Virus record (IMG/VR): IMGVR_UViG_3300032050_000717
Location: 1-25,929 of that record
DNA from: a virus
Strand: one strand, 5' to 3'
Length of the DNA: 25,929 nucleotides
Part shown: positions 12,110-25,006 of the stretch, one piece after another
How positions within the stretch are numbered: the stretch's first letter is position 1
Layout: each line of letters opens with the position of its first letter
The notes under the pieces: model-generated
Database searches by the model: none
The model's input: the letters and a program-made list of their open reading frames with translations, nothing else
Told to the model about the DNA's origin: nothing
Translations under genes and position numbers: made by a program

Positions 12110-14313
12110 TGGCAGTACAAGCCGCAGTCAAAGATGCGTTTACTTTTGTAGGTGGCCTCAATACTGAAGGCGGCTTTTTTGTCACGCCTGAAAACTCTTG
12201 GAAAGATGGCGTTAACGTAGTGCCTTTAATTGATGGCAGCATTGAGCGTAGAAGTGGTCTTGATTACGAGACTAACTATACTCTTGCTGCTTTAAACATT
12301 ACAGCAGAACAAAAAAATACGTGGGCATTTACTACAGGTACATGGTCTAGTGTTGGAGGCAACTCTAACCTAGACTTCATGGTTGTGCAAGCTGGCACTA
12401 CACTTCACTTCTACCGTGCAGCATCGGGTACTGTAAGCAACACTAAAAAATCGTTCACAGTTAATTTAGCATCTTACACTGCTCCCGGTAACCCAGACAC
12501 TGCTGGTACTTCTATTTGTAGCTTTGCATCTACGTACGGTAAACTCATTGTTACTAGTAAAAGCACGGAACCAATACTCATTACGTATGACAGTTCTACA
12601 GACACCATCACTGTAGCTACCATTACTATTCAAATCCGTGACTTCATTGGATTCCAAAGTCCTTACGCTATTAACGTTGAAAAAACTGCAGCAGAGTGGA
12701 CTAGTGCTGGTTTGTTAACACAAGCACGTTACAACCTATACAATCAAGGTTGGACGGACACACTCATTAATAGTTACGAATCTTCAACAGGTTCTTTACC
12801 TGCCAACAGTAAAAGTTGGATTTTTGGTAAAGACACTAACGATAACTTTAGTGCATCTGTTTTAAATAAACAAGATTTTGGTACGTCCCCTGCTCCTAAA
12901 GGCAGGTTTATTCTTAATGCTTTTAATCAAGTACGTAGTGGCATTACAACTACCATTGAGTATCGTCCTCGTGTGTGTGCATTCTTTGCAGGGCGTGTGT
13001 GGTATGCTGGTGTACCAACCACTGCACAACTAGGCACGGTATATTTTAGTCAGGTGCTAGATGATATTAATAAAGTAGGTTACTGTTACCAATCTAACGA
13101 TCCTACTTCAGAAGTTGTTAGCGATTTAGAAGATGATGATGGTGGTACAATTGAAATTCCAGATAGCGGTGAAATTTTAGATTTAAAACCATTAGGTCGA
13201 GGCATCATGGTTATTGCCACCAATGGTGTATGGTTTATCAGCGGCATTGATCGTGGCTTTACTGCAGCTAGTTATTCTGTAGAGCGTGTATCGTCTGTAG
13301 GTTGTGTATCTACTAAGAGTGTCGTGGTAGTTGAAGACGCACTAATTTACTGGTCTAACGGCGGTATTTACGCAGTGTCTCCCGGTAATACAGGTGCAGA
13401 GTTTTCTAGTCGTAACATTAGCGATCAGAACATTAAGACGTTTTATCAAAACATTCCTGTACTAAGCAAACTGTATGCTGAAGGCAGTTACAATGCTACT
13501 GATAAAGTAATGTACTGGCTATATTCATCTACAGAAACAACAAATACTAGTGAAGGGCGTTTTAATAAGAACACTATTCTTGCGTTAGATTTGCGCCTTA
13601 ATGCTTGGTATTGGTTTAGTATTGACACCACGTTAGGTGTTATTCCTGTATCGTTAGAAGTTACTAAAGAAACAAACGAAGCTGTACTTGTGTACGATGT
13701 GTACGCAGGTAATGATGACGTTAATCGTAGTACTGACGATGTTGTTGCAAATATTCCTGTGCTTAATGGCACAAAGAAAACATTTAAAATTGTAGCGTTA
13801 CATCCTGTATCTGCTAATAACTATTCACTTACATTTAGTGATTTCTTAAACACTAGAGATAGTGCAACTAAGTTTAAAGATTGGTACACGTTTAACACTG
13901 CTGGTGTAGAACAAAGTGCTTATTTTATTACAGGTTATAATATGGGAGGCAATGGCCCTGCTCGTATTAAAACAGGTATGTATTTAACAGTGTTTATGAA
14001 ACGTACAGAAACATCGTTTGATGCAAATGCTAATCCACTTAATGAAAGTGGTTGTCTAATGCAAAGCCGTTGGGACTTTACAGATAATAGTAATGCAGGT
14101 AAGTGGGCAGATGAAGTGCAAGTTTATCGTCAACCTCGTCCATTCCTAGCGGAGCCTTTCCAAGCGTTTGATGACGGTTATCCCCTTGTTATTAGTAAGA
14201 ATAAGTTGCGTGGTCGTGGTAAAGCTGTACAGTTTAAGTATGCTTCTCAGTCTGGTAAAGACATGAAGATTGTAGGCTGGACAGGAACATTTGTGGGTGC
14301 AACAAATGTTTGA
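12109..14313 (+). CDS. Tail tubular protein B-like nozzle protein (T7 gp12 type)
   Basis: A 734-residue protein forming the distal part of the short tail. I start it at ATG 12109 (TAATG overlap, AAAGG upstream); an in-frame GTG at 12091 would add only six residues. The N-terminus has TFVGGLNTEGGFFVTPENSW and DGVNVVPLIDGSIERRSGLD, the hallmark of gp12-type nozzle proteins, which open with a GGxxxxxP start and a beta-propeller platform. Later segments such as RVWYAGVPTTAQLGTVYFSQ, IMVIATNGVWFISG, and VVEDALIYWSNGGIYAVSPG are propeller blade repeats. The C-terminal third is beta-rich. Length is close to T7 gp12 (794). It is followed by a four-gene ejection module. Confidence 0.85.
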   Translation: MAVQAAVKDAFTFVGGLNTEGGFFVTPENSWKDGVNVVPLIDGSIERRSGLDYETNYTLAALNITAEQKNTWAFTTGTWSSVGGNSNLDFMVVQAGTTLHFYRAASGTVSNTKKSFTVNLASYTAPGNPDTAGTSICSFASTYGKLIVTSKSTEPILITYDSSTDTITVATITIQIRDFIGFQSPYAINVEKTAAEWTSAGLLTQARYNLYNQGWTDTLINSYESSTGSLPANSKSWIFGKDTNDNFSASVLNKQDFGTSPAPKGRFILNAFNQVRSGITTTIEYRPRVCAFFAGRVWYAGVPTTAQLGTVYFSQVLDDINKVGYCYQSNDPTSEVVSDLEDDDGGTIEIPDSGEILDLKPLGRGIMVIATNGVWFISGIDRGFTAASYSVERVSSVGCVSTKSVVVVEDALIYWSNGGIYAVSPGNTGAEFSSRNISDQNIKTFYQNIPVLSKLYAEGSYNATDKVMYWLYSSTETTNTSEGRFNKNTILALDLRLNAWYWFSIDTTLGVIPVSLEVTKETNEAVLVYDVYAGNDDVNRSTDDVVANIPVLNGTKKTFKIVALHPVSANNYSLTFSDFLNTRDSATKFKDWYTFNTAGVEQSAYFITGYNMGGNGPARIKTGMYLTVFMKRTETSFDANANPLNESGCLMQSRWDFTDNSNAGKWADEVQVYRQPRPFLAEPFQAFDDGYPLVISKNKLRGRGKAVQFKYASQSGKDMKIVGWTGTFVGATNV

Positions 14314-14596
14314 TGTATTTTGGGAAGACGAAGACGGCACATTAAAGTTTCAGCATCACATGGGCCGTGTTTATGCACATGCCGTTACTAATAATTGGAA
14401 CAAACGTGTATACATGAAATGCCTAGACGTATGGCACGTTGCAAAAGAAGAATTAAGAGAAGCAGGGCACAATGAAGTGTTTGTAATTATTCCTGCTGAT
14501 AACAAAAAGTTACGTAAGTTTGAAACAATCTTTGGCTTTAAACCTGTTAAACAGATTAACAATGCTCTGTTAATGGTTTGTTCAACGGAGAAATAA
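14306..14596 (+). CDS. Small GNAT-like protein in the T7 gp13 (internal virion protein A) position
   Basis: A 96-residue protein. ATG 14306 overlaps the nozzle gene by eight bases; an upstream in-frame TTG (14291) adds five residues only. The end, NEVFVIIPADNKKLRKFETI followed by FGFKPVKQINNALLM, resembles the C-terminal strands of GNAT acetyltransferases, where a residue pair is followed by a bulky GFK turn. The N-terminal acetyl-CoA loop (Q/RxxGxG/A) is absent, so catalysis is unlikely. T7 gp13, encoded after gp12, is known to be distantly related to acetyltransferases and assists assembly of the internal core. The homology is inferred from position and C-terminal pattern. Confidence 0.55.
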   Translation: MFDVFWEDEDGTLKFQHHMGRVYAHAVTNNWNKRVYMKCLDVWHVAKEELREAGHNEVFVIIPADNKKLRKFETIFGFKPVKQINNALLMVCSTEK

Positions 14597-14597
14597 A

Positions 14598-15071
14598 ATG
14601 GGAATGGATCCAATTACTCTAGCATACATTGCTATCGGTACTCAAGCTGTAGGCACTATTGCTAGTGCAAATGAACAGCGCAAAGCGGGAAAAGCAGCAC
14701 AGCGTCAGTACGCAGCCGAAGAACGAAAATCAGAAGTGCAAAACGTTCGCTCAGTACGTCAACAAATTCGGGAAGCTCGTCTAGCACAAGCATCTATGAC
14801 TAACGTAGCTGCACAAACTGGGGCTATGGGTAGTAGTGCACTTGCTGGTGGTGTTAGTAGTGTAGGTTCTCAATTGTCTGGCAACTTAAACTACATGCAA
14901 CAAATTGCTAAAGAAAACACTGCTATTGGTGCAGCCGCTGCTGCAGGTGCACAAGCTAGTAGTAACGCTGCAATTTATGGTTCTATTGGTCAACTAGGTG
15001 GAACTATCTTTAGTACTATGGGGCCTAAAGCATTACGTGCCCCTGCCCCTACTATTGATACTAGCCGGTAA
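14598..15071 (+). CDS. Internal virion (ejection) protein, T7 gp14-like
   Basis: A 157-residue protein starting one base after the previous stop, with GGAG before ATG 14598; ATG 14604 is an alternative. It opens with a hydrophobic helix (ITLAYIAIGTQAVGTIASAN), continues as a long charged helix (NEQRKAGKAAQRQYAAEERK, VRSVRQQIREARLAQASM), and then becomes Gly/Ala/Ser-rich with small-residue runs (GAAAAAGAQASSNAA), and ends Pro-rich. T7 gp14, which forms a pore in the outer membrane after ejection, has this kind of composition and lies in the same place. Size is somewhat smaller than T7 gp14 (196). Confidence 0.7.
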   Translation: MGMDPITLAYIAIGTQAVGTIASANEQRKAGKAAQRQYAAEERKSEVQNVRSVRQQIREARLAQASMTNVAAQTGAMGSSALAGGVSSVGSQLSGNLNYMQQIAKENTAIGAAAAAGAQASSNAAIYGSIGQLGGTIFSTMGPKALRAPAPTIDTSR

Positions 15072-15088
15072 TAAATAGAGAATACATA

Positions 15089-18000
15089 ATGGAACTATAC
15101 CAAGACGACGCAGCACCGGAAGAGCAACAACCTCTGTACACAGAGGCAGATACTAAATCCGAAGTAGATCCTACACGGGGGGATTATTCTATTGTAAAAG
15201 CCATTGCTGCCACTGCAACAGGACAGCCTTTAGATGCTGGTTCTGTTGAGTTTAATTCTTTTGTAGATAAAACATGGCGCACCACTGTACCTCAAAATAA
15301 TGCCGTTGATTATGAAGCGTTACAAGCTGCTGCTGCACGTAACGATCCTTACAGCATTGAAGCACTAATTAGTAGGCTAAATGACCGTATTCGCATGCAC
15401 GGTGAAATTTCATCTCAAAATGCAGCAGATGTAACTAAAAAACTTAAAGAGCTTACAGATTTAGCTGTAGAAAATGCTGCTGTTAAAAACCAAGCCGTAC
15501 TACTTAATAACACACCAGTAAAAATTGCAGAGTCTACTGATCGTATTTCTAAACGCTTAGCAGCCTCTGCTGAACTTGAAAAAGCTTTAAAAGACGGACA
15601 AAGTATTTGGTCTATTGGTAAAGGTTTATTATACGAGCTTACCCCGTTTGCTGCATCACAAGGCCCAGCTATTGATGATGTTGCAGTTAAAATGGGTGTT
15701 CCTAAAGACTACATTAGCCGTACAGATGGGCGTTCGGTTACTCGTAGTTATTTGCAATCATTATTCCAAGCACAACCAGAAGAAGAAAAAGCAGCTTTCC
15801 TAACAAAGATGTACACGCTCCTTAAAGATGCGTGGAACATTAGTGAGTGGCAAGCAGCACTAACTGTACAAGAAGTTGCTACTAATGAAGAACAAGTGTG
15901 GGGTGGTTGGTCTGATTGGCTAGATCGTATTGGTGTCGTAGGTACAGCATTAACAGGCACTGCGGCTGTTTTAAAAGCAGGTAGCTTGCTTAAGAGTGCT
16001 AAGGCTATTAATAACGTAGAACGAACCCTTGCAGCAGGTGGTGGTAAAAGCGCCATTGTATCTGCTGAAAGTACGAAGATTGCGGCTGAAGTAGCTAACA
16101 GAATGCGTGTACAGGCACTTGGAGTTGTTGCAGGTGAAGTAACTGGTGTATCTGCTGTACTTGACCTAGCCAAACTAGTTAGTGTCAACGCGGCTAAAGT
16201 GTTGCCTGATGTAATTACAACTGCTGCTGATGACTTGCAAAAAACTATTCGCCAGCCTGTAGACCGTTTAATTAGTGATCTACAGAATGTAATTGCAACT
16301 AAAGGTGTTCGTGCCGAAGAAGCGGCAATTGAACTTGCAGCAATTGAGCGTACCTACTCAAAAGCTAACAACCCTAACATTCACTCAGTAGATCCATTTA
16401 CAATGTCTGCTGATGGATTAACTATTTCTGGTAAAGTATTTTATAAACCAGATAATGCTTCTGCATTCCTTACTAAAGAAGCAGCAGAGGCATACATTAA
16501 AGTTGCTGATCCAACAGGTAAGATGGGAATGAAAGTTGTGCCTGACACAACTAACACCTCATTTTTAGTAGAAGAGTCTGTTAAAAAAGATTTACAGTTA
16601 CGTAAAACTGCGTTAGAAGCACAGATTTTAGAAGCTATCAATGCTTTAAAAACTACCACACCTACAATACCTACACCAGTTGCTGTGGCTGATGTTCCTA
16701 TTCCGCGTGAGCTAGAGCTAGGTAAACCACGTTGGAAAACCGCTGGTCTTGTGTTTGAATCCGATATTGATAAAGCAGCTTATCAAGTTGGTAGTAAAAC
16801 TAAAATGAGTAAAAGTGACGCAGTTGTTAAAGAATGGCTACAAAAAGTTACGGGCTGGTCTGATGCGGCTATTAAAACACACGCTGCTAAAGTACGAAAC
16901 TTCATTAAAGAAAACGAAGACTTTTCGTTAGATGATGCAGGTAATATTTTAGTTGCAGATAATGTAAACGTAGCTAAAGCAGCTTACACTTTACTACCTT
17001 ACGAAAACGCATTTGATGCTATTAATAACACAAGTAACTTTATCCGCATCGGTAATGTTACAATGTCTAGTGGTGTGGCACAAAACGATGTGTTTAGTTT
17101 TATTAGTAAACTAGGTAAAGCACTAGGCATGGAGAACCGTCAAATTATGGTTCTTCAGTATAACGACATTAGAAATACAACAGATGTTAATCTTTTAGAA
17201 TTAAAAAAGAAATTTGATAAACATCAATTTGCTGGTGCACTACATATTCCACAAGGCCGTAATCGCAGCGTAATTATTATGCGCGACCAAATGCGCGTTG
17301 GTGAAGAGGGTGTAGGAGTGTCTCGTCGGCGTTACATGGAGACATTTGCACACGAGTACGCACACGCATTTGAAGAAGCGTTTAGTGTTGATCACGGTGT
17401 AACCATGATGAACAACTTTGAATCTTGGTTAAAAACTAAAGGTATTAAATACACAGGCGCGGGATCTAATATTAAACTATCAGATAAAGTTCCAGCAGAA
17501 GCAATGTTGGAATATAGGTCTATTACCAATGCTGCTGATTTAGTACATTTTATTGAAAAGTGGCATGCTGGTGACGTTGCTGATTTTAAAGTTTACCAAG
17601 AAAACTTTGCAAATTGGGCACGTAATTACAGCGAGTTTTTTGCAGAAAACTTTGCTAAATGGGCTTTTAGCGATGAGATTCCTACTACCATTTTAGGTCA
17701 AACATTTAAAAAACTAGTAGACGGTTTTAAACTAATTGTAGGTGCAGTTAACGGCTTACTAGAAGAAATGGGCATTGTTGCCGGTGTAGGTGCTGTAGAT
17801 AAAAATACTGCGCGTATGTTAAACGCGCACATTAAACTAGTAGAACAACAACGTGTTATTGCCGCAGCTAATTCTACCAACATAGAAAAAGCTAGCATGT
17901 CTATGCGTACACCTTTAGATTCTCTAGAAAGAGAACTAGAGGATGTAGCTAATCAGCTTAATGCCATTGAAGATGCAGAGCGAGGTCTTGCTACTGGTTA

Positions 18001-20992
18001 CGTAGTTGAGCAACCTATTAACCGCACATTAGATTACTCACTAATTGGTAAGTATTCTGACGAAGATATTAATAGCGCCACTCGTTTTGCAATGGGAGAT
18101 TGGGCACTATCTACCTCTAAAGAGTTGTACGGTCAACGTGTAGTAGGCATTGCACAACAAAGCCGTTACCAAAAACTGTTAACTAATTTTGTGCGTCCTT
18201 CTCTTGAGAGGCTTAGTAAAGCTGAGATGGTAGCACTCAACGATGCGCTAGTTCTTGGCGATAAAGAAGGTAAGGTATTCCAGCAAAACGAACTAGCTGG
18301 TATGGGCCTGTCTCCTAAAGCTCGTGAGGGCTATTACAAGGTACGTGCTCTGCGTGATGTAATGTGGCAGATTCGTAACGACGTAGCTGCTAAAGATATG
18401 ACACGCCGTGGTTATGTGCAACTTACTAGCCGTATTCCTCTAACAGAGGATGGTCGTTTGTTTGTTAAGCCTCGTGAAGTTGTAGAAGGTGACACTGTGT
18501 TTCTAGCAGACACAATGTCTCCTACTCGCATTACTGAAGAGTTCCTAGCAGAAAACCAACTGCGTGGTTACACGTTCTACGAAGTTGCTGAGCCTATTGA
18601 GATTGAAGGTAAGTTACGTCGCATTATTGCTTTCCCAGAAAACAGTTATGACACTGCTAAAATTACCAATGTGATTCCTTACCGTGCTGGTGAATATCGC
18701 CGTATCTATAGCGATGAATACTTTGTTAAGATTAAGTCTGTGTACGAAGTAGACGGCAAGATGGAAAAGGTTGTGCAGACACACCGCACTGCGGCTAGTG
18801 TTGCTGAGGCCAACGCTTATGTTAAAGCATTTAATGAAGCCAAAGCATTACACACTGCTGGTAGACTCACTGTTGCTGAAGCTAGTCGTCTAATGGAGCC
18901 GTATGGCTGGCGACCAGAAGACATTATGGCTGCTTTTGATAGCAATCGCTTTGGACAGTCTTTTGAGACAGAAGTTTTGTATACCCGCACCGATGACGAT
19001 TACATTAAAGAAACCATTGGTCTTTCTTCTAATTACTCTTCAAAGCGCGGTGACAAGGTGCTATCTGTGTTTGGTAAAGACACTGTAAACACTCTTAGCC
19101 CACTAGACAGTGTAGCTGCTGAAATTGGCAACACTGCTTATGTGGCTTCTACTACTGAATGGAGAGCAAGCCACGTAATTCGTTGGTTCAATACGTTCGT
19201 AGATATTTTACCTGAAAATGTGCGTACTATGACTCCTGACGCAGCATTTTTGTATATGGAAAACAACAAACAATTCTATGCAGGGCAAAGTAAACAACTA
19301 GCTACAGCTAGAAAAGTTCAGGAATATATTATTTCACAAATGAATATTCCTACTAAAGAAGAAAAAGACTACCTTGGTTTCATGCGTATAATTAGTGAGT
19401 CGTTAGAAGGCACTACTAGTAATAAAGCTGTTGCTAAATTAGGTGCTACTTTACGTGCAACTAAAGATTACCCTACATGGGCACGAACCATTGCATTCCA
19501 CAGCTTCTTTGCATTCAACGTTAACCAGTTTTTTATGCAGGGTATGAACGCGTTTAACGCAATTGCAATTAGCCCTTTACATGGTTTAAAAAGTGCTAAG
19601 TCTTCTGGGCTATATGCAATGGCTTTATTTAGCGATCAAGAGGATATTTGGCGCAATGTGGCTAAAGTAAACAACCTCACTAACCTTGGCTTAGGCATGA
19701 AGGAAGATGAGTTTGTGGAAGTTGTACGAGCAATTCGCCGTACTGGTCTAATGGATGGCATTAACACTACGAGCTTGTATGGTGCTGAAGTTGGCAAGTA
19801 CGGCATTTTTAATAAACTAACTCGACGTACTGCTGATTTTGCAGCAACACCATTTAATGCTGGTGAAGGTTATAGCCGATTAGTTAGCTTTGATATTGCA
19901 CGTAGAGAGTTTATCTCTGCTAATCCTGGAACTGCTTGGTGGACTGATGACAACCTAGCTAAAATTATGGAGCGTCAAGATAGTCTGACTCAGAACATGA
20001 CTCGTGCTAACACTGCTACATGGCAGCAAGGCTGGAAGTCTATTCCTACTCAGTTCGTTCAATATCAGGTAAAGCTGATGATGAACATTGTTCAGAGTTT
20101 GCTAGGCAACCCACGAGCATTTACACAAAAAGAAGCTGTACAATTACTAATAACACACACGTTAGTGATGGGTACTGCGGGTTCATTCTTGTGGCCTTTC
20201 CGCGATTTAGTGACTGACATGCTTCCTGAAAATATGTCTGAAAATGGACGTATTACTGTACAGCAAGGCGTGGTTGCTGGTGCAATTGCTGCACTAACTG
20301 ATGGTGAAGCTAAGCTGGCACTAGGTAGCCGCTTTAACACATTCAAATATTACGAAGACATTATTAAAGGACTCTTAGATCCTGAAAAAAGTTTTATGGA
20401 AGTAGCTGCTGGCCCGTCTGGTTTTGCTGCTTTACGTATATTAGGTGGTGTAGGTGAAGCCATTCAAATTGTTACTAAAGCACCTATGACTATGGACACA
20501 CTACAAATTGCTTTGACTGAGTTGGGTAAGAATAGCTTTTCGTTTATTAATAACATTCAAAAAGCCCGCATTGCAATGGCTAACTACAACCAAGTTCAAA
20601 GCAGTGGTGGTGATGCAATGTTCCGTGTTACAGACACTGAAGCATGGATGATTGGATTTGGCATTCCTCCTGTTGCACAAGAAAACTTGTCAATTATGTA
20701 CAGCAGCAAGAAGGCGCATGACGACGATATTAAATCGGCTGGTAAGGCAATTGGTAAACACGCAATGCTTGCACTCACTGCTTTACGTAATGGAGATGAT
20801 GAAGGGCACAGGACACACTCAGCAGTTGTACATGCCATTCTAAATACCTACACAGGATCAGACCTACAGCAACTATATCGAGAAGCTTACAAAACAGAAG
20901 CATTTACTCAGTATGAAAAAATGGTAACTGATCAAGCTGTAAAAGAGTGGAAGATTAAAGACATTACGACGGATATAGGAGTACAGAAATAA
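15089..20992 (+). CDS. Giant internal virion (ejection) protein with HEXXH metallopeptidase motif, T7 gp16-like position
   Basis: A 1967-residue protein, the largest gene here. It sits where T7 encodes gp15/gp16, the internal core proteins ejected to conduct DNA. Mostly helical and soluble, with hydrophobic stretches near residues 284-300 (VVGTALTGTAAVLKAGSLL), 1468-1500 (FFAFNVNQFFMQGMNAFNAI) and 1687-1706 (HTLVMGTAGSFLWPF). Residues 750-765 read METFAHEYAHAFEEAF-like, with zinc-binding HEYAH at 755-759. About 90 residues later, NYSEFFAENFAKWAF offers Glu849 or Glu853 as the third ligand, a gluzincin arrangement. No transglycosylase domain is seen in it; that activity is encoded separately downstream. 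The N-terminus is acidic and Gln/Glu-rich. Ejection role is likely, peptidase activity inferred. Confidence 0.75.
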   Translation: MELYQDDAAPEEQQPLYTEADTKSEVDPTRGDYSIVKAIAATATGQPLDAGSVEFNSFVDKTWRTTVPQNNAVDYEALQAAAARNDPYSIEALISRLNDRIRMHGEISSQNAADVTKKLKELTDLAVENAAVKNQAVLLNNTPVKIAESTDRISKRLAASAELEKALKDGQSIWSIGKGLLYELTPFAASQGPAIDDVAVKMGVPKDYISRTDGRSVTRSYLQSLFQAQPEEEKAAFLTKMYTLLKDAWNISEWQAALTVQEVATNEEQVWGGWSDWLDRIGVVGTALTGTAAVLKAGSLLKSAKAINNVERTLAAGGGKSAIVSAESTKIAAEVANRMRVQALGVVAGEVTGVSAVLDLAKLVSVNAAKVLPDVITTAADDLQKTIRQPVDRLISDLQNVIATKGVRAEEAAIELAAIERTYSKANNPNIHSVDPFTMSADGLTISGKVFYKPDNASAFLTKEAAEAYIKVADPTGKMGMKVVPDTTNTSFLVEESVKKDLQLRKTALEAQILEAINALKTTTPTIPTPVAVADVPIPRELELGKPRWKTAGLVFESDIDKAAYQVGSKTKMSKSDAVVKEWLQKVTGWSDAAIKTHAAKVRNFIKENEDFSLDDAGNILVADNVNVAKAAYTLLPYENAFDAINNTSNFIRIGNVTMSSGVAQNDVFSFISKLGKALGMENRQIMVLQYNDIRNTTDVNLLELKKKFDKHQFAGALHIPQGRNRSVIIMRDQMRVGEEGVGVSRRRYMETFAHEYAHAFEEAFSVDHGVTMMNNFESWLKTKGIKYTGAGSNIKLSDKVPAEAMLEYRSITNAADLVHFIEKWHAGDVADFKVYQENFANWARNYSEFFAENFAKWAFSDEIPTTILGQTFKKLVDGFKLIVGAVNGLLEEMGIVAGVGAVDKNTARMLNAHIKLVEQQRVIAAANSTNIEKASMSMRTPLDSLERELEDVANQLNAIEDAERGLATGYVVEQPINRTLDYSLIGKYSDEDINSATRFAMGDWALSTSKELYGQRVVGIAQQSRYQKLLTNFVRPSLERLSKAEMVALNDALVLGDKEGKVFQQNELAGMGLSPKAREGYYKVRALRDVMWQIRNDVAAKDMTRRGYVQLTSRIPLTEDGRLFVKPREVVEGDTVFLADTMSPTRITEEFLAENQLRGYTFYEVAEPIEIEGKLRRIIAFPENSYDTAKITNVIPYRAGEYRRIYSDEYFVKIKSVYEVDGKMEKVVQTHRTAASVAEANAYVKAFNEAKALHTAGRLTVAEASRLMEPYGWRPEDIMAAFDSNRFGQSFETEVLYTRTDDDYIKETIGLSSNYSSKRGDKVLSVFGKDTVNTLSPLDSVAAEIGNTAYVASTTEWRASHVIRWFNTFVDILPENVRTMTPDAAFLYMENNKQFYAGQSKQLATARKVQEYIISQMNIPTKEEKDYLGFMRIISESLEGTTSNKAVAKLGATLRATKDYPTWARTIAFHSFFAFNVNQFFMQGMNAFNAIAISPLHGLKSAKSSGLYAMALFSDQEDIWRNVAKVNNLTNLGLGMKEDEFVEVVRAIRRTGLMDGINTTSLYGAEVGKYGIFNKLTRRTADFAATPFNAGEGYSRLVSFDIARREFISANPGTAWWTDDNLAKIMERQDSLTQNMTRANTATWQQGWKSIPTQFVQYQVKLMMNIVQSLLGNPRAFTQKEAVQLLITHTLVMGTAGSFLWPFRDLVTDMLPENMSENGRITVQQGVVAGAIAALTDGEAKLALGSRFNTFKYYEDIIKGLLDPEKSFMEVAAGPSGFAALRILGGVGEAIQIVTKAPMTMDTLQIALTELGKNSFSFINNIQKARIAMANYNQVQSSGGDAMFRVTDTEAWMIGFGIPPVAQENLSIMYSSKKAHDDDIKSAGKAIGKHAMLALTALRNGDDEGHRTHSAVVHAILNTYTGSDLQQLYREAYKTEAFTQYEKMVTDQAVKEWKIKDITTDIGVQK

Positions 20993-23259
20993 TGGCAACT
21001 TTTCGCGCAGACATTACTAGGAGCGTAGAACCAGCAGCGGCTAATCCTGCACTACTAGGTAGGGCAGCGGAAGCTAACGCTCGTGCAGTGGGCACATTAA
21101 CAAACCTTGCTGGAGAAATGTACAAGGGTTATGTTGCTGGTCAAATGGTTGACATTGAAAATGAAGCTGCTACAGCAGCAGGTGAGTTTTTTATTAAAGG
21201 TCAAGCTGCTGAACAAGCAGCAGCAAAGAGCGCAACAATCCAAGCAGCACGGGGTACTGTATTTGGACAATTTGATGAATCCGCTCCCCTTGAACAACAA
21301 GAAGCTGTAGGTAGGCAGCTAGGGGCTTTTGATAATGAATTAAACCGCCTTAAAGCTGCTGTTGAAGGAGGCATGTCCAATGTGCAGTATATTTCGCGTA
21401 TTGACTCTATTGTTAAAAAAGCAATTGGTAAGTTTCCCGGTTTAGCTGATCAAATTCGTGAGCGTGTTGCTTCTGTTACTGGTATGCCCGGTGCAGATCG
21501 TTGGGCACAGATGAGTTATGTTCGTGACCGTTTTACACCTCCTAAAGAAGGTAAGGCTGCTAAAACTGAAGAAGACATGGCTCTTCAAGACATTGATGAA
21601 ATTGCTAAGACAGGCCTAAAATCTCGTGAAGAACTACTAAAACTCTATCGTGAAAATCGTGGCGAGTACAATGTACAACGAGATGCTTGGAAACAAATTC
21701 TTACTCAACAGACAGAAACTGCACGAATTAAAGCCTATTACGAAGGTTTAAGTAGGCAAAATGATGCAAAGGCTGATCAAATGAAATCAGGATTTGCTGC
21801 TATTTTTAATGGTAGTTTAGCTGCGTCTACACTTGTATATGGTGTACAAGACAAAGAAAGTACGTATGGAAACACGCTTGCTTTAATGGCACAAGGTGAT
21901 CCTAGAGCAGTTGATCCTGTAAAATTTGACACACTAGTTCAATTGCATAATATTCAGATGCGTACTAATATTATGAGTGCCCATCGACAAGCTGCCCAAG
22001 TTATTGAAACGTACACAGGTAAAAACCCTGATATTTCCCCTGCTAAAGTAAGAGAACTGTACGAGAACATTGATAGGCAACGGGATCTTGCATTAAGTCA
22101 GTACTCAGACAAGGACGGTGTAGGCCTAAAAGCTATGGCTACTGTTATGAGGACTTATCGGGATAAGACTGTACAAGAGAAACAACAGCTTGTTGATTTA
22201 TCAATTAAACAAATGGCTTTCTATCAGAACAGCCCTCTTGTACAGCAGTACCTGCGAGGTGGTGCAGATCGTGAAAATCTAAAGCGTACTAATAAAGATT
22301 TTTACGAAATCATGGTGAACCAAGAGAAACAGGTTTTAGGAGGAATGGCTAGTTTAAGTAGTTCTATTCAAATTTCTACTGACCTGTCTAATATTCAGCG
22401 TCAGCTTTTACAAGGTCAACAAACTGGTCAAGCCGTACCTGCTGACCCTGCTGTTCCTGCACAAACTACTCGTGCTGCACACCAAGTACAAATGTCTAAT
22501 GCACAAGAGGCATTAAAAAAGACTACACTAGAACCTTTTGAGGTCAACAATATTAGCTCAGCGTTTAGTACGTCTGCTGTGTACGGGGCTAATAGTCTAG
22601 TAATTTCTCGTGACTATCGCACGTATGGAGACAAGATTCGTAAACTATCTGAGCCAGATCAGGCAATTATTAAGTCTAACGTTAGTAAAGGTGTTGCACA
22701 ATCTGTAAACAACGTAATTGAAACAAAACGATTCATTGAGCAACGATATGGAGTACAACTACAGTTAGGTATTAATGACGCTGGTGAGATTGGTGTAGTT
22801 GCCCCTGCACCTGTAGTGCGTCCCGGAGTACCTGCACCCCGAGTACCTCAGCAATACTTACAAGCTTCAGAAGAGTTTACACGTCAACTTAAGCCTGTAC
22901 TTAGCAACATGGTTTCTCTACGTGCTATGCTTACACAAGAACAACCTAAGGCTGTTGGTCAAGACTTTGCTACGCTTATTAATAACAACCAACCTTACGG
23001 TGGTTTCTTTAGCATGGAAGCTAAACCTGTAGAAGCTGCGCCAGCGGTAGCTGCGCCAGCAGCAAGTACTCCAGCAGCACCTGCAACACCTGCGTTTACA
23101 TCAACTCCTGCTGCACCCGGTACCCGTACTAGTAACATTGTCTCAGGTCGTGTTGTAGATCTTACTACACCAGCAACTCCTGCACAAGAAGCACCTGCTG
23201 CTAGTGCAGCTAGGTCAGCAGCACCTGCCTCTGGTGGTAAAGAGTGGTGGGAGCAGTAA
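20992..23259 (+). CDS. Internal virion (ejection) protein, T7 gp15-like
   Basis: A 755-residue, largely alpha-helical protein, close in size to T7 gp15 (747), the core protein that with gp16 spans the periplasm during DNA entry. ATG 20992 overlaps the giant gene's stop (TAATG). The N-terminal half is Ala/Glu/Gln-rich (ENEAATAAGEFFIKGQAAEQ). It then continues through helical repeats (RIKAYYEGLSRQNDAKADQM, DISPAKVRELYENIDRQRD). The last 80 residues are a disordered Ala/Pro/Thr-rich linker (AAPAVAAPAASTPAAPATPA) that includes the repeated 11-base sequence GCTGCGCCAGC at 23035 and 23050, ending in GGKEWWEQ. The function is inferred from order, size and helical content, since these core proteins diverge strongly. 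Confidence 0.65.
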   Translation: MATFRADITRSVEPAAANPALLGRAAEANARAVGTLTNLAGEMYKGYVAGQMVDIENEAATAAGEFFIKGQAAEQAAAKSATIQAARGTVFGQFDESAPLEQQEAVGRQLGAFDNELNRLKAAVEGGMSNVQYISRIDSIVKKAIGKFPGLADQIRERVASVTGMPGADRWAQMSYVRDRFTPPKEGKAAKTEEDMALQDIDEIAKTGLKSREELLKLYRENRGEYNVQRDAWKQILTQQTETARIKAYYEGLSRQNDAKADQMKSGFAAIFNGSLAASTLVYGVQDKESTYGNTLALMAQGDPRAVDPVKFDTLVQLHNIQMRTNIMSAHRQAAQVIETYTGKNPDISPAKVRELYENIDRQRDLALSQYSDKDGVGLKAMATVMRTYRDKTVQEKQQLVDLSIKQMAFYQNSPLVQQYLRGGADRENLKRTNKDFYEIMVNQEKQVLGGMASLSSSIQISTDLSNIQRQLLQGQQTGQAVPADPAVPAQTTRAAHQVQMSNAQEALKKTTLEPFEVNNISSAFSTSAVYGANSLVISRDYRTYGDKIRKLSEPDQAIIKSNVSKGVAQSVNNVIETKRFIEQRYGVQLQLGINDAGEIGVVAPAPVVRPGVPAPRVPQQYLQASEEFTRQLKPVLSNMVSLRAMLTQEQPKAVGQDFATLINNNQPYGGFFSMEAKPVEAAPAVAAPAASTPAAPATPAFTSTPAAPGTRTSNIVSGRVVDLTTPATPAQEAPAASAARSAAPASGGKEWWEQ

Positions 23260-23726
23260 TGGCTGATTGGAAAGAGCTTGTTAAAAATAAGAAAGAGTGG
23301 AAGACCCTAAAGTATAATGATCCACGACTAGATGACTTTGCGCTAGAAGTGGAGAACAGGTATGGTCTTCCTAAAGGCATGGTGCTAGCCATTAAGAATG
23401 CCGGGGAGCGCACTAACCCCGGTCAGGTTAGCCCTAAAGGTGCACAGGGCATTATGCAGTTTATGCCAGCTACTCAGAAGCTGCAGAACGGAATGTTCAA
23501 GCACGATGTAAACAATCCATTTGCATCTATTGATGCTGCTGGTAAATATCTGAAGTTTACTTTAGAGAATCAGTATAAAGGAAATGCGCTAGCTGCTGTT
23601 GCAGATTACAACGGTGGGCCTTCTGCTGGTAAGGCAATGCTAGCTGGTGAGATGCCTCCTGCTAAGGAAACGCAGGAGTATATAGAGAGAGTTAAGACTT
23701 ACTTAACCGAAAAGTATAAGAAATAA
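23259..23726 (+). CDS. Lytic transglycosylase, SLT-type, separate gene
   Basis: A 155-residue peptidoglycan-cleaving enzyme that cuts the glycan between MurNAc and GlcNAc. ATG 23259 overlaps the previous stop (TAATG); an upstream in-frame codon adds only five residues. The SLT domain covers about residues 34-150: YGLPKGMVLAIKNAGERTNP gives catalytic Glu50, SPKGAQGIMQFMPAT (58-72) is the signature, and ADYNGGPSA (115-123) is the conserved YNxG block. No signal peptide is present. In T7 this domain is the N-terminus of gp16; here it is a free-standing protein at the end of the ejection module. It probably travels in the virion to open the wall on entry, although a lysis role alongside the M15 enzyme is possible. 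Confidence 0.85.
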   Translation: MADWKELVKNKKEWKTLKYNDPRLDDFALEVENRYGLPKGMVLAIKNAGERTNPGQVSPKGAQGIMQFMPATQKLQNGMFKHDVNNPFASIDAAGKYLKFTLENQYKGNALAAVADYNGGPSAGKAMLAGEMPPAKETQEYIERVKTYLTEKYKK

Positions 23727-24340: not shown

Positions 24341-24498
24341 TGCTGCTTCTCCATAAAGCTGTGACACACTTGATGCACCTTACCGTCGCCCGTCTTAAAT
24401 TTTAAAACAACTTCAAGCTTGTTATCAAAGTCATAGACGCTAATAAACAAATGCTTGCGTAGGGCTTCCATCATTCGGTACGTTTCAGAATTGGTCAT
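24337..24498 (-). CDS. Small protein, 53 residues, unknown function
   Basis: A short frame that fills the gap between the sigma factor and the 63-residue gene: start ATG 24498, stop TGA 24337-24339. It encodes MTNSETYRMMEALRKHLFIS, then a strand-rich middle (VYDFDNKLEVVLKFKTGDGK) and a C-terminal VHQVCHSFMEKQQ. GGAG lies about six bases upstream. It overlaps the end of the sigma gene by 14 bases and the next start by ATGA. Correct frame, ribosome binding site and coupling at both ends support a real gene. No family is recognised. Confidence 0.65.
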   Translation of the reverse strand: MTNSETYRMMEALRKHLFISVYDFDNKLEVVLKFKTGDGKVHQVCHSFMEKQQ

Positions 24499-25006
24499 AA
24501 TAACTCCGTATAGTTTTCTTTGCTTTCCAAACCAAGTTTTTAGCGTGGTTCGGGCTACACCTCAACACCACAGCAATGTCATTATAGCACATATTGTCCT
24601 CCAGCTTCAGCATCAGGGCTTTCTTCTGCTTGGCAGGAAGTGTGTCAATAAGTTGCGTCACTTTACCCACTGTCTGCTTAATCTCGTATATTGATTCTGG
24701 TGTATCCACGGTTACATTCTCAAAGTCGGTTTTAAGGCTGTTTAAAGGCCGTCTAGACGCTTTATTGATGGCTATGGTACACAACCATGTATAGAACTGA
24801 CTATCGCCCCTAAACGTCTTCAAATACTTGAATGCAGCTACAAATGTATCTTGTGTTAGCTCCTCTGCCAAAGCATTGTCGTTAACACGTTTCCTAAGAA
24901 ATCTGTAGATGCGATCCCAATACTTGGATGTTAGCAGAGAGTAAGCTTCCTCACTCCCTGCTAGCGCCTCTGATATTAGTAACGTGTCATCAGATTTCAC
25001 AGACAC
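24485..25006 (-). CDS. ECF-type sigma-70 family RNA polymerase sigma factor
   Basis: A 173-residue sigma factor with only regions 2 and 4, the group 4 (ECF) layout. Region 2 covers about residues 15-87: EEAYSLLTSKYWDRIYRFLR, then DNALAEELTQDTFVAAFKYL (core RNA polymerase clamp contact) and FRGDSQFYTWLCTIAINKA (-10 recognition). Region 4 covers about 115-170, with LPAKQKKALMLKLEDNMCYN and the helix-turn-helix DIAVVLRCSPNHAKNLVWKA for -35 binding. It would direct host core RNA polymerase to phage promoters. The start is GTG 25006 (overlap of 17 bases with the reductase gene); GTG 25000 is an alternative and neither has a strong ribosome binding site. No anti-sigma gene is seen. phiEco32 is a known podovirus with an ECF-like sigma (gp36) for late genes. 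Confidence 0.85.
   Translation of the reverse strand: MSVKSDDTLLISEALAGSEEAYSLLTSKYWDRIYRFLRKRVNDNALAEELTQDTFVAAFKYLKTFRGDSQFYTWLCTIAINKASRRPLNSLKTDFENVTVDTPESIYEIKQTVGKVTQLIDTLPAKQKKALMLKLEDNMCYNDIAVVLRCSPNHAKNLVWKAKKTIRSYYDQF

What the first reader, a model, noticed from the sequence alone, without database searches (positions are those of the whole stretch)
17341..17676. Zinc metallopeptidase signature inside a 1967-residue ejection protein
HEYAH at residues 755-759 is followed about 90 residues later by NYSEFFAENFAKW, a fitting third-ligand helix for a gluzincin. The protein is one of the internal virion proteins expected to enter the cell first. A peptidase delivered with the DNA could process partner ejection proteins, the wall-spanning tube or a host target such as a defence protein. 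T7 gp15/gp16 contain no such domain.
Basis: partly seen in the sequence, partly recalled or inferred. Interest (0 to 1): 0.72.

Follow-up and report, generated by a model that had tools for sequence, protein, structure and literature searches.

The report
Protease cassette in a phage ejection protein
A short-tailed phage carries, inside the giant protein it is expected to inject with its DNA, a complete zinc-protease module that a sister phage lacks and that relatives appear to swap, so it looks like delivered cargo of a kind already known from phage N4 but not, as far as found here, in this phage group.

Summary
HEYAH is at residues 755-759 and NYSEFFAENFAKW at 846-858 of a 1967-residue protein in the T7 gp16 position of a Zobellviridae-like late module. 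Metagenomic homologues keep His755, Glu756, His759, Glu849 and Glu853 while the surrounding region falls to 35-50% identity. An AlphaFold2 model (pLDDT 85, pTM 0.86) has the zincin layout, and its best annotated structural match is a phage large polyvalent protein (E 4.8e-7). Profile comparison aligns it in register with the HEXXH domain of the N4 virion RNA polymerase.

New here: the domain is a discrete cassette of about 325 residues (608-931). A sister phage is collinear on both sides and lacks exactly this block; cultured Zobellviridae checked have no HEXXH. The tree needs one gain. The window's cassette is far more diverged from its nearest relatives than its flanks, at synonymous sites too, which points to allele replacement by recombination.

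So the peptidase reading is well supported; its target is not known. I favour an injected effector acting on a host or rival protein (0.45) over self-processing (0.3). Ejection-protein zincins are known (N4, P1 DdrB; Iyer 2017), so this is a new variant, not a new kind.

The parts
15089..20992 (+). Giant internal virion (ejection) protein, 1967 aa, Zobellviridae IVP-D / T7 gp16 position
   Evidence: phrog_12003 'internal virion protein' E 4.5e-43 over residues 1050-1776; synteny with 12 reference phages
16910..17881 (+). Cassette (residues about 608-931) absent from the sister phage L117
   Evidence: tblastn of the whole protein against the L117 contig matches residues 21-607 and 932-1932 only; alignment
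17006..17893 (+). Predicted zincin fold (residues 640-935), pLDDT 85.2, pTM 0.86
17243..17245 (+). His719, nearly invariant, in core strand 2 (model residues 78-82)
   Evidence: corresponds to the His that Iyer 2017 describes at the end of strand 2 of a phage-type clade
17351..17365 (+). HEYAH: His755 and His759 (predicted zinc ligands), Glu756 (predicted general base)
17624..17662 (+). NYSEFFAENFAKW helix with invariant Glu849 (17633-17635, likely third ligand) and Glu853 (17645-17647)
18236..20416 (+). Conserved C-terminal half shared with Zobellviridae internal virion proteins (residues 1050-1776 of the phrog match)
14598..15071 (+). gp14-like small ejection protein
   Evidence: phrog_8168 E 2.5e-18; Pfam T7_gp14 only E 0.018, below its cut-off; position
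20992..23259 (+). gp15-like partner ejection protein (by position)
   Evidence: no family match
23244..23726 (+). Separate SLT transglycosylase, probably the wall-opening enzyme of the ejection set
   Evidence: Pfam SLT E 4.1e-16; phrog_342 'internal virion protein with endolysin domain' 1.3e-21

Best explanation
Residues about 608-931 are a zincin-type zinc metallopeptidase domain of the polyvalent-protein kind, set as a cargo cassette between the N-terminal and C-terminal modules of the giant ejection protein. It is expected to be packaged in the head and to enter the cell envelope or cytoplasm with the ejection proteins, ahead of or together with the DNA, and there to cut a protein. Steps shown by sequence: motif conservation, predicted fold, cassette boundaries, distribution that needs one gain, high-divergence allele in the window. 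Steps inferred: packaging and ejection (from homology and gene order), zinc binding and proteolysis (from family knowledge), and the target. My preferred target is a host or competing-phage protein (about 0.45 for this full reading). That the domain is a zincin fold at all I put at about 0.9, and catalytically active at about 0.8.
For: Invariant H755/E756/H759/E849/E853 in a fast-diverging stretch. Model pLDDT 85 with helix, three strands, HEXXH helix, second Glu helix. BFVD structural matches: a large polyvalent protein at E 4.8e-7, 17% identity, then SprT-like, MuF, putative peptidase, matrixin and lethal-factor-named phage proteins at weaker E. Profile match to the N4 vRNAP domain, HEXXH in register, E 6e-4, none of 150 column permutations reached the score. 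Pfam sub-threshold hits dominated by metallopeptidases. dN/dS about 0.05-0.15 in the domain for most pairs. Cassette missing cleanly in L117, with no HEXXH in any ORF of 60 aa or more on that contig. One change on the C-terminal tree. Window versus nearest relatives: cassette mostly 20-56% identical between flanks of about 75-100% (block 851-875 is higher); fourfold sites near saturation in the cassette and below the flanks in 4 of 4 pairs (p 0.0001-0.034), while L037/L041 shows the reverse, p 2e-6. Exchange without co-change of the flanks, and persistence of a lineage without it, fit accessory cargo better than a maturation step.
Against: No experiment. No PDB fold match at E<=0.001. A tree test does not reject the window's cassette grouping with its nearest relatives (p-AU 0.54), so replacement rests on branch length and synonymous divergence. 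Only one contig lacking the cassette covers the whole region. In N4 the region holding the domain is required for packaging (PMC5512222), which would also suit a structural role.
Confidence: 0.45

Rival explanations
1. Self- or partner-processing protease: the zincin cuts the giant protein, or its gp14/gp15-like partners, in the head or after ejection, to release modules or to allow passage through the portal.
For: Iyer 2017 favours processing for many polyvalent zincins; P1 DdrB is cut before packaging (PMC5512222). The cassette is flanked by weakly conserved, linker-like stretches (residues 520-560, 601-650, 920-950).
Against: The sister phage keeps both flanks and the same gene order without the cassette. 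No conserved candidate cut motif was seen at the borders. Cassette alleles seem to exchange without matching change of the flanks. N4 vRNAP is packaged uncut (PMC5512222).
Confidence: 0.3
2. A zincin fold kept mainly for structure or packaging, with weak or no protease activity.
For: The N4 region that holds its domain is needed for encapsidation (PMC5512222).
Against: Both His, the catalytic Glu and the third-helix Glu are invariant while the rest diverges; L117 does without the domain.
Confidence: 0.15
3. Not a zincin: an HEXXH in an unrelated helical domain, or a non-peptidase HExxH enzyme such as the alphaKG-HExxH type cited in the N4 paper.
For: No Pfam, NCBIfam, PHROG or PDB family reaches its threshold; the N4 authors leave the chemistry open (PMC12633501).
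Against: Conserved second Glu helix, zincin layout of the model, polyvalent-protein structural match, in-register N4 profile match.
Confidence: 0.1

Closest known systems
N4 (Schitoviridae) virion RNA polymerase C1 domain, residues about 2124-2375 / MPTase of Iyer et al. 2017
   Same: HEXXH plus Glu helix inside a giant ejected protein; shared ETxxHExxHA core; in-register profile match E 6e-4
   Different: Carrier protein is an RNA polymerase, not a T7 gp16-type ejection protein; third motif NEFMAW instead of YSEFFAENFAKW; Foldseek did not list an N4 structure among the top 50 PDB matches (whether it is in that library was not checked)
Phage-type MPTase of large polyvalent proteins (Iyer et al. 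2017, PMC5512222), e.g. P1 DdrB
   Same: Zincin core layout; His in strand 2; acidic residue three positions after HEXXH; one structural match at E 4.8e-7
   Different: Only 17% identity; no Pfam model of the class matches; the acidic residue is Glu or Asp, and Ala in L114
Zobellviridae internal virion protein (ICP2 gp6, VpV262 ORFU, ICBM2 IVP-D, phrog_12003)
   Same: Homologous C-terminal ~900 residues, same gene order
   Different: 1413-1674 aa, no HEXXH in any of 12 examined
SprT-like and ATLF (lethal-factor-like) zincins
   Same: Sub-threshold SprT-like matches in 7 of 29 members; zincin-named phage proteins among weak fold matches; Iyer 2017 links the N4 domain to the lethal-factor fold
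   Different: No significant membership by sequence or fold

Membership tests
Gluzincin / zincin metallopeptidase | HEXXH on one helix | tested here: met
   HEXXH invariant in 29 sequences, inside helix 107-144 of the model
Gluzincin / zincin metallopeptidase | Third-ligand Glu on a downstream helix | tested here: met
   Glu849 and Glu853 both invariant, helix 208-220 of the model
Gluzincin / zincin metallopeptidase | Core of N-terminal helix, three-stranded sheet, two C-terminal helices | tested here: met
   Elements H26-39, E46-51, E78-82, E87-92, H107-144, H208-220 in that order; sheet pairing not inspected
Gluzincin / zincin metallopeptidase | Ligands within zinc-binding distance; zinc bound; proteolysis | not testable with these tools
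Phage-type polyvalent MPTase (Iyer 2017) | Conserved His at the end of core strand 2 | tested here: met
   His719, at least 90% conserved, in strand 78-82
Phage-type polyvalent MPTase (Iyer 2017) | Asp three residues after HEXXH | tested here: inconclusive
   Glu in most, Asp in L009/L037/L039/L041/L046, Ala in L114
Phage-type polyvalent MPTase (Iyer 2017) | Sequence or fold similarity to the class | tested here: met
   BFVD polyvalent protein E 4.8e-7, prob 1.00; N4 profile E 6e-4; no Pfam match
Pfam SprT-like | Score above the curated cut-off | tested here: not met
   Best E 0.0017 among 29 members, none for the window; L114 scored 15.1 bits against a cut-off of 25.6
Zobellviridae internal virion protein | Family profile match and gene order gp14-like / giant / gp15-like | tested here: met
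   phrog_12003 E 4.5e-43
Zobellviridae internal virion protein | Present in virion and ejected | not testable with these tools
   Inferred from homology and annotation only

The most novel reading that the evidence does not exclude
In one lineage of Zobellviridae-like podophages the ejection protein acts as a delivery chassis: it gained a zincin protease cassette once, phages now exchange divergent cassette alleles by recombination, one relative (L114) stacked a second, different HEXXH domain next to it, and the delivered protease attacks host or competitor proteins in the first moments of infection.
Probability: 0.35. Interest if true: 0.75.

Novelty: new variant of a known kind. Interest (0 to 1): 0.5.

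Why it matters
What the zincins of injected phage proteins do has been open at least since they were catalogued in 2017. This lineage offers a natural comparison: the same ejection protein with, without and apparently with exchanged cassettes. That makes it testable whether the protease is needed for assembly, for processing, or only in particular hosts, and suggests ejection proteins can be loaded with protein cargo at a defined site.

Tried and rejected
First AlphaFold2 job with 3 sequences was poor (pLDDT 59.5) and its fold search meaningless. PDB fold search of the good model gave nothing significant. Pfam, PHROG, NCBIfam and PDB sequence searches found no family for the domain. No domain relatives in 50,697 phage records or in GTDB genomes. 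Conservation of HEXXH in the later homologues is partly circular because search patterns contained it. Formal tree conflict for the cassette was tested and not shown. Idea that the sister phage keeps a stand-alone protease: no HEXXH in any ORF of 60 aa or more on its 17-kb contig, though that contig is partial. Literature searches for a metallopeptidase in internal virion proteins returned nothing relevant beyond the N4 and polyvalent-protein papers.

Full report
Observation. The 1967-residue ORF at 15089-20992 is intact. HEYAH lies at residues 755-759 and NYSEFFAENFAKW at 846-858, as reported. It is the only HEXXH in the protein, against about 0.016 expected from composition. The window is a 25,929-base virus record.

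Context. The late genes run terminase, portal, scaffold, capsid, tail tube proteins, a small ORF, a gp14-like protein, the giant protein, a gp15-like protein and a separate SLT transglycosylase (the head genes are named from gene order and general knowledge). The giant protein matches phrog_12003, internal virion protein (E 4.5e-43), and shares its C-terminal half at 22-31% identity with Zobellviridae proteins such as ICP2 gp6, VpV262 ORFU and ICBM2 IVP-D in the same gene order. Packaging and ejection are inferred from this, not shown.

Conservation. Searches with patterns lacking HEXXH found nine relatives; the eight that cover the region keep it (the ninth, L010, ends before it). Larger scans gave over thirty. 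In the 29-sequence alignment H755, E756, H759, E849 and E853 are invariant and His719 nearly so, in a part of the protein where conservation is mostly 0.34-0.48. A scan keyed on the C-terminal half, blind to the domain, found the motifs in every relative above 55% identity whose frame covers the region. Most pairs show dN/dS of 0.05-0.15 in the domain.

Fold. With 29 sequences AlphaFold2 gives pLDDT 85.2 and pTM 0.86, with helix, three strands, the HEXXH helix and a later helix holding E849/E853. Against predicted viral structures the best match is a 48% homologue, then a large polyvalent protein (E 4.8e-7, prob 1.00, 17% identity) and, more weakly, other zincin-named phage proteins. No solved structure matches at E<=0.001. 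I could not measure ligand distances. A profile of the N4 vRNAP HEXXH domain from 75 sequences aligns in register (score 32.7, E 6e-4, HHalign probability only 28%; 150 column permutations, mean 14.8, maximum 29.3; without the motif columns 24.0). The alignment covers strands and HEXXH, not the third helix, where I match E849 to the N4 Glu2310 by eye.

Cassette. The whole protein matches the L117 contig at residues 21-607 and 932-1932 only, with 69 bases between: both flanks and the gene order are kept and the domain is absent, with no HEXXH in any ORF of 60 aa or more on that 17-kb contig. Twelve reference Zobellviridae have none. On a C-terminal tree the zincin carriers form one side of one branch, support 100/96, sister to L117/L116. 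A single gain is simplest; a loss in the L117 line is possible. L116 does not cover the region.

Exchange. Between the window and its nearest relatives (L046, L041, L039, L037) identity is about 75-100% on most of both flanks and mostly 20-56% from about residue 626 to 950, close to the L117 gap. At fourfold sites the cassette is near saturation and below the flanks in all four pairs (p 0.0001-0.034; not corrected, and the pairs are not independent), while L037/L041 is closer in the cassette than outside (p 2e-6). Elevated synonymous divergence points to replacement rather than fast protein evolution. A tree test did not reject common grouping, so I call exchange likely, not shown.

Mechanism. 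Iyer et al. 2017 (PMC5512222) described zincins as the commonest domain of polyvalent proteins and proposed processing, post-entry release or attack on host proteins. P1 DdrB is cut before packaging; N4 vRNAP is packaged whole. The N4 structure paper (PMC12633501) reports the conserved HExxH motif in the C1 domain, without assigning a function in the passages I read. For the present lineage, absence in a sister and likely allele exchange favour accessory cargo. I give 0.45 to an injected effector, 0.3 to processing, 0.15 to a structural role and 0.1 to not a zincin.

Novelty. Zincins in ejected phage proteins are known; a discrete, apparently exchangeable zincin cassette in a T7 gp16-type ejection protein is, in the sources I could search, undescribed. 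It is a new variant of a known kind.

Noticed in passing
L114 residues about 530-680 (L114:4300-5000): A relative carries a second, different HEXXH segment (AHEFAHAFW ... TVEELMADGLAFWLKYPE) just upstream of the conserved zincin, at the same site of the protein; no match in phage records.
   Followed up: partly
window about 18325-18335; L024, L025, L027, L091, L096, L097, L049: Six contigs end or begin within about 10 bases of one site in the giant gene (codon ~1080), with a 15-base overlap between two contigs of one metagenome, and a seventh has a ~30-base deletion and frameshift there; other contigs span it. Assembly artefact, insertion site or physical end not resolved.
   Followed up: partly
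24485-25006 (-): ECF-type sigma factor (RpoE-like, TIGR02939 E 7.7e-26; phrog_1740 1.3e-22) beside a ribonucleotide reductase gene; seems unusual for a phage of this group.
   Followed up: partly
14291-14596 (+): Small ORF at the position where many Zobellviridae encode a GNAT acetyltransferase; no PHROG match, possibly a degenerate relative.
   Followed up: partly
L117 951-3281: Tail tube B gene is split into two ORFs in the cassette-less sister phage.
   Followed up: no
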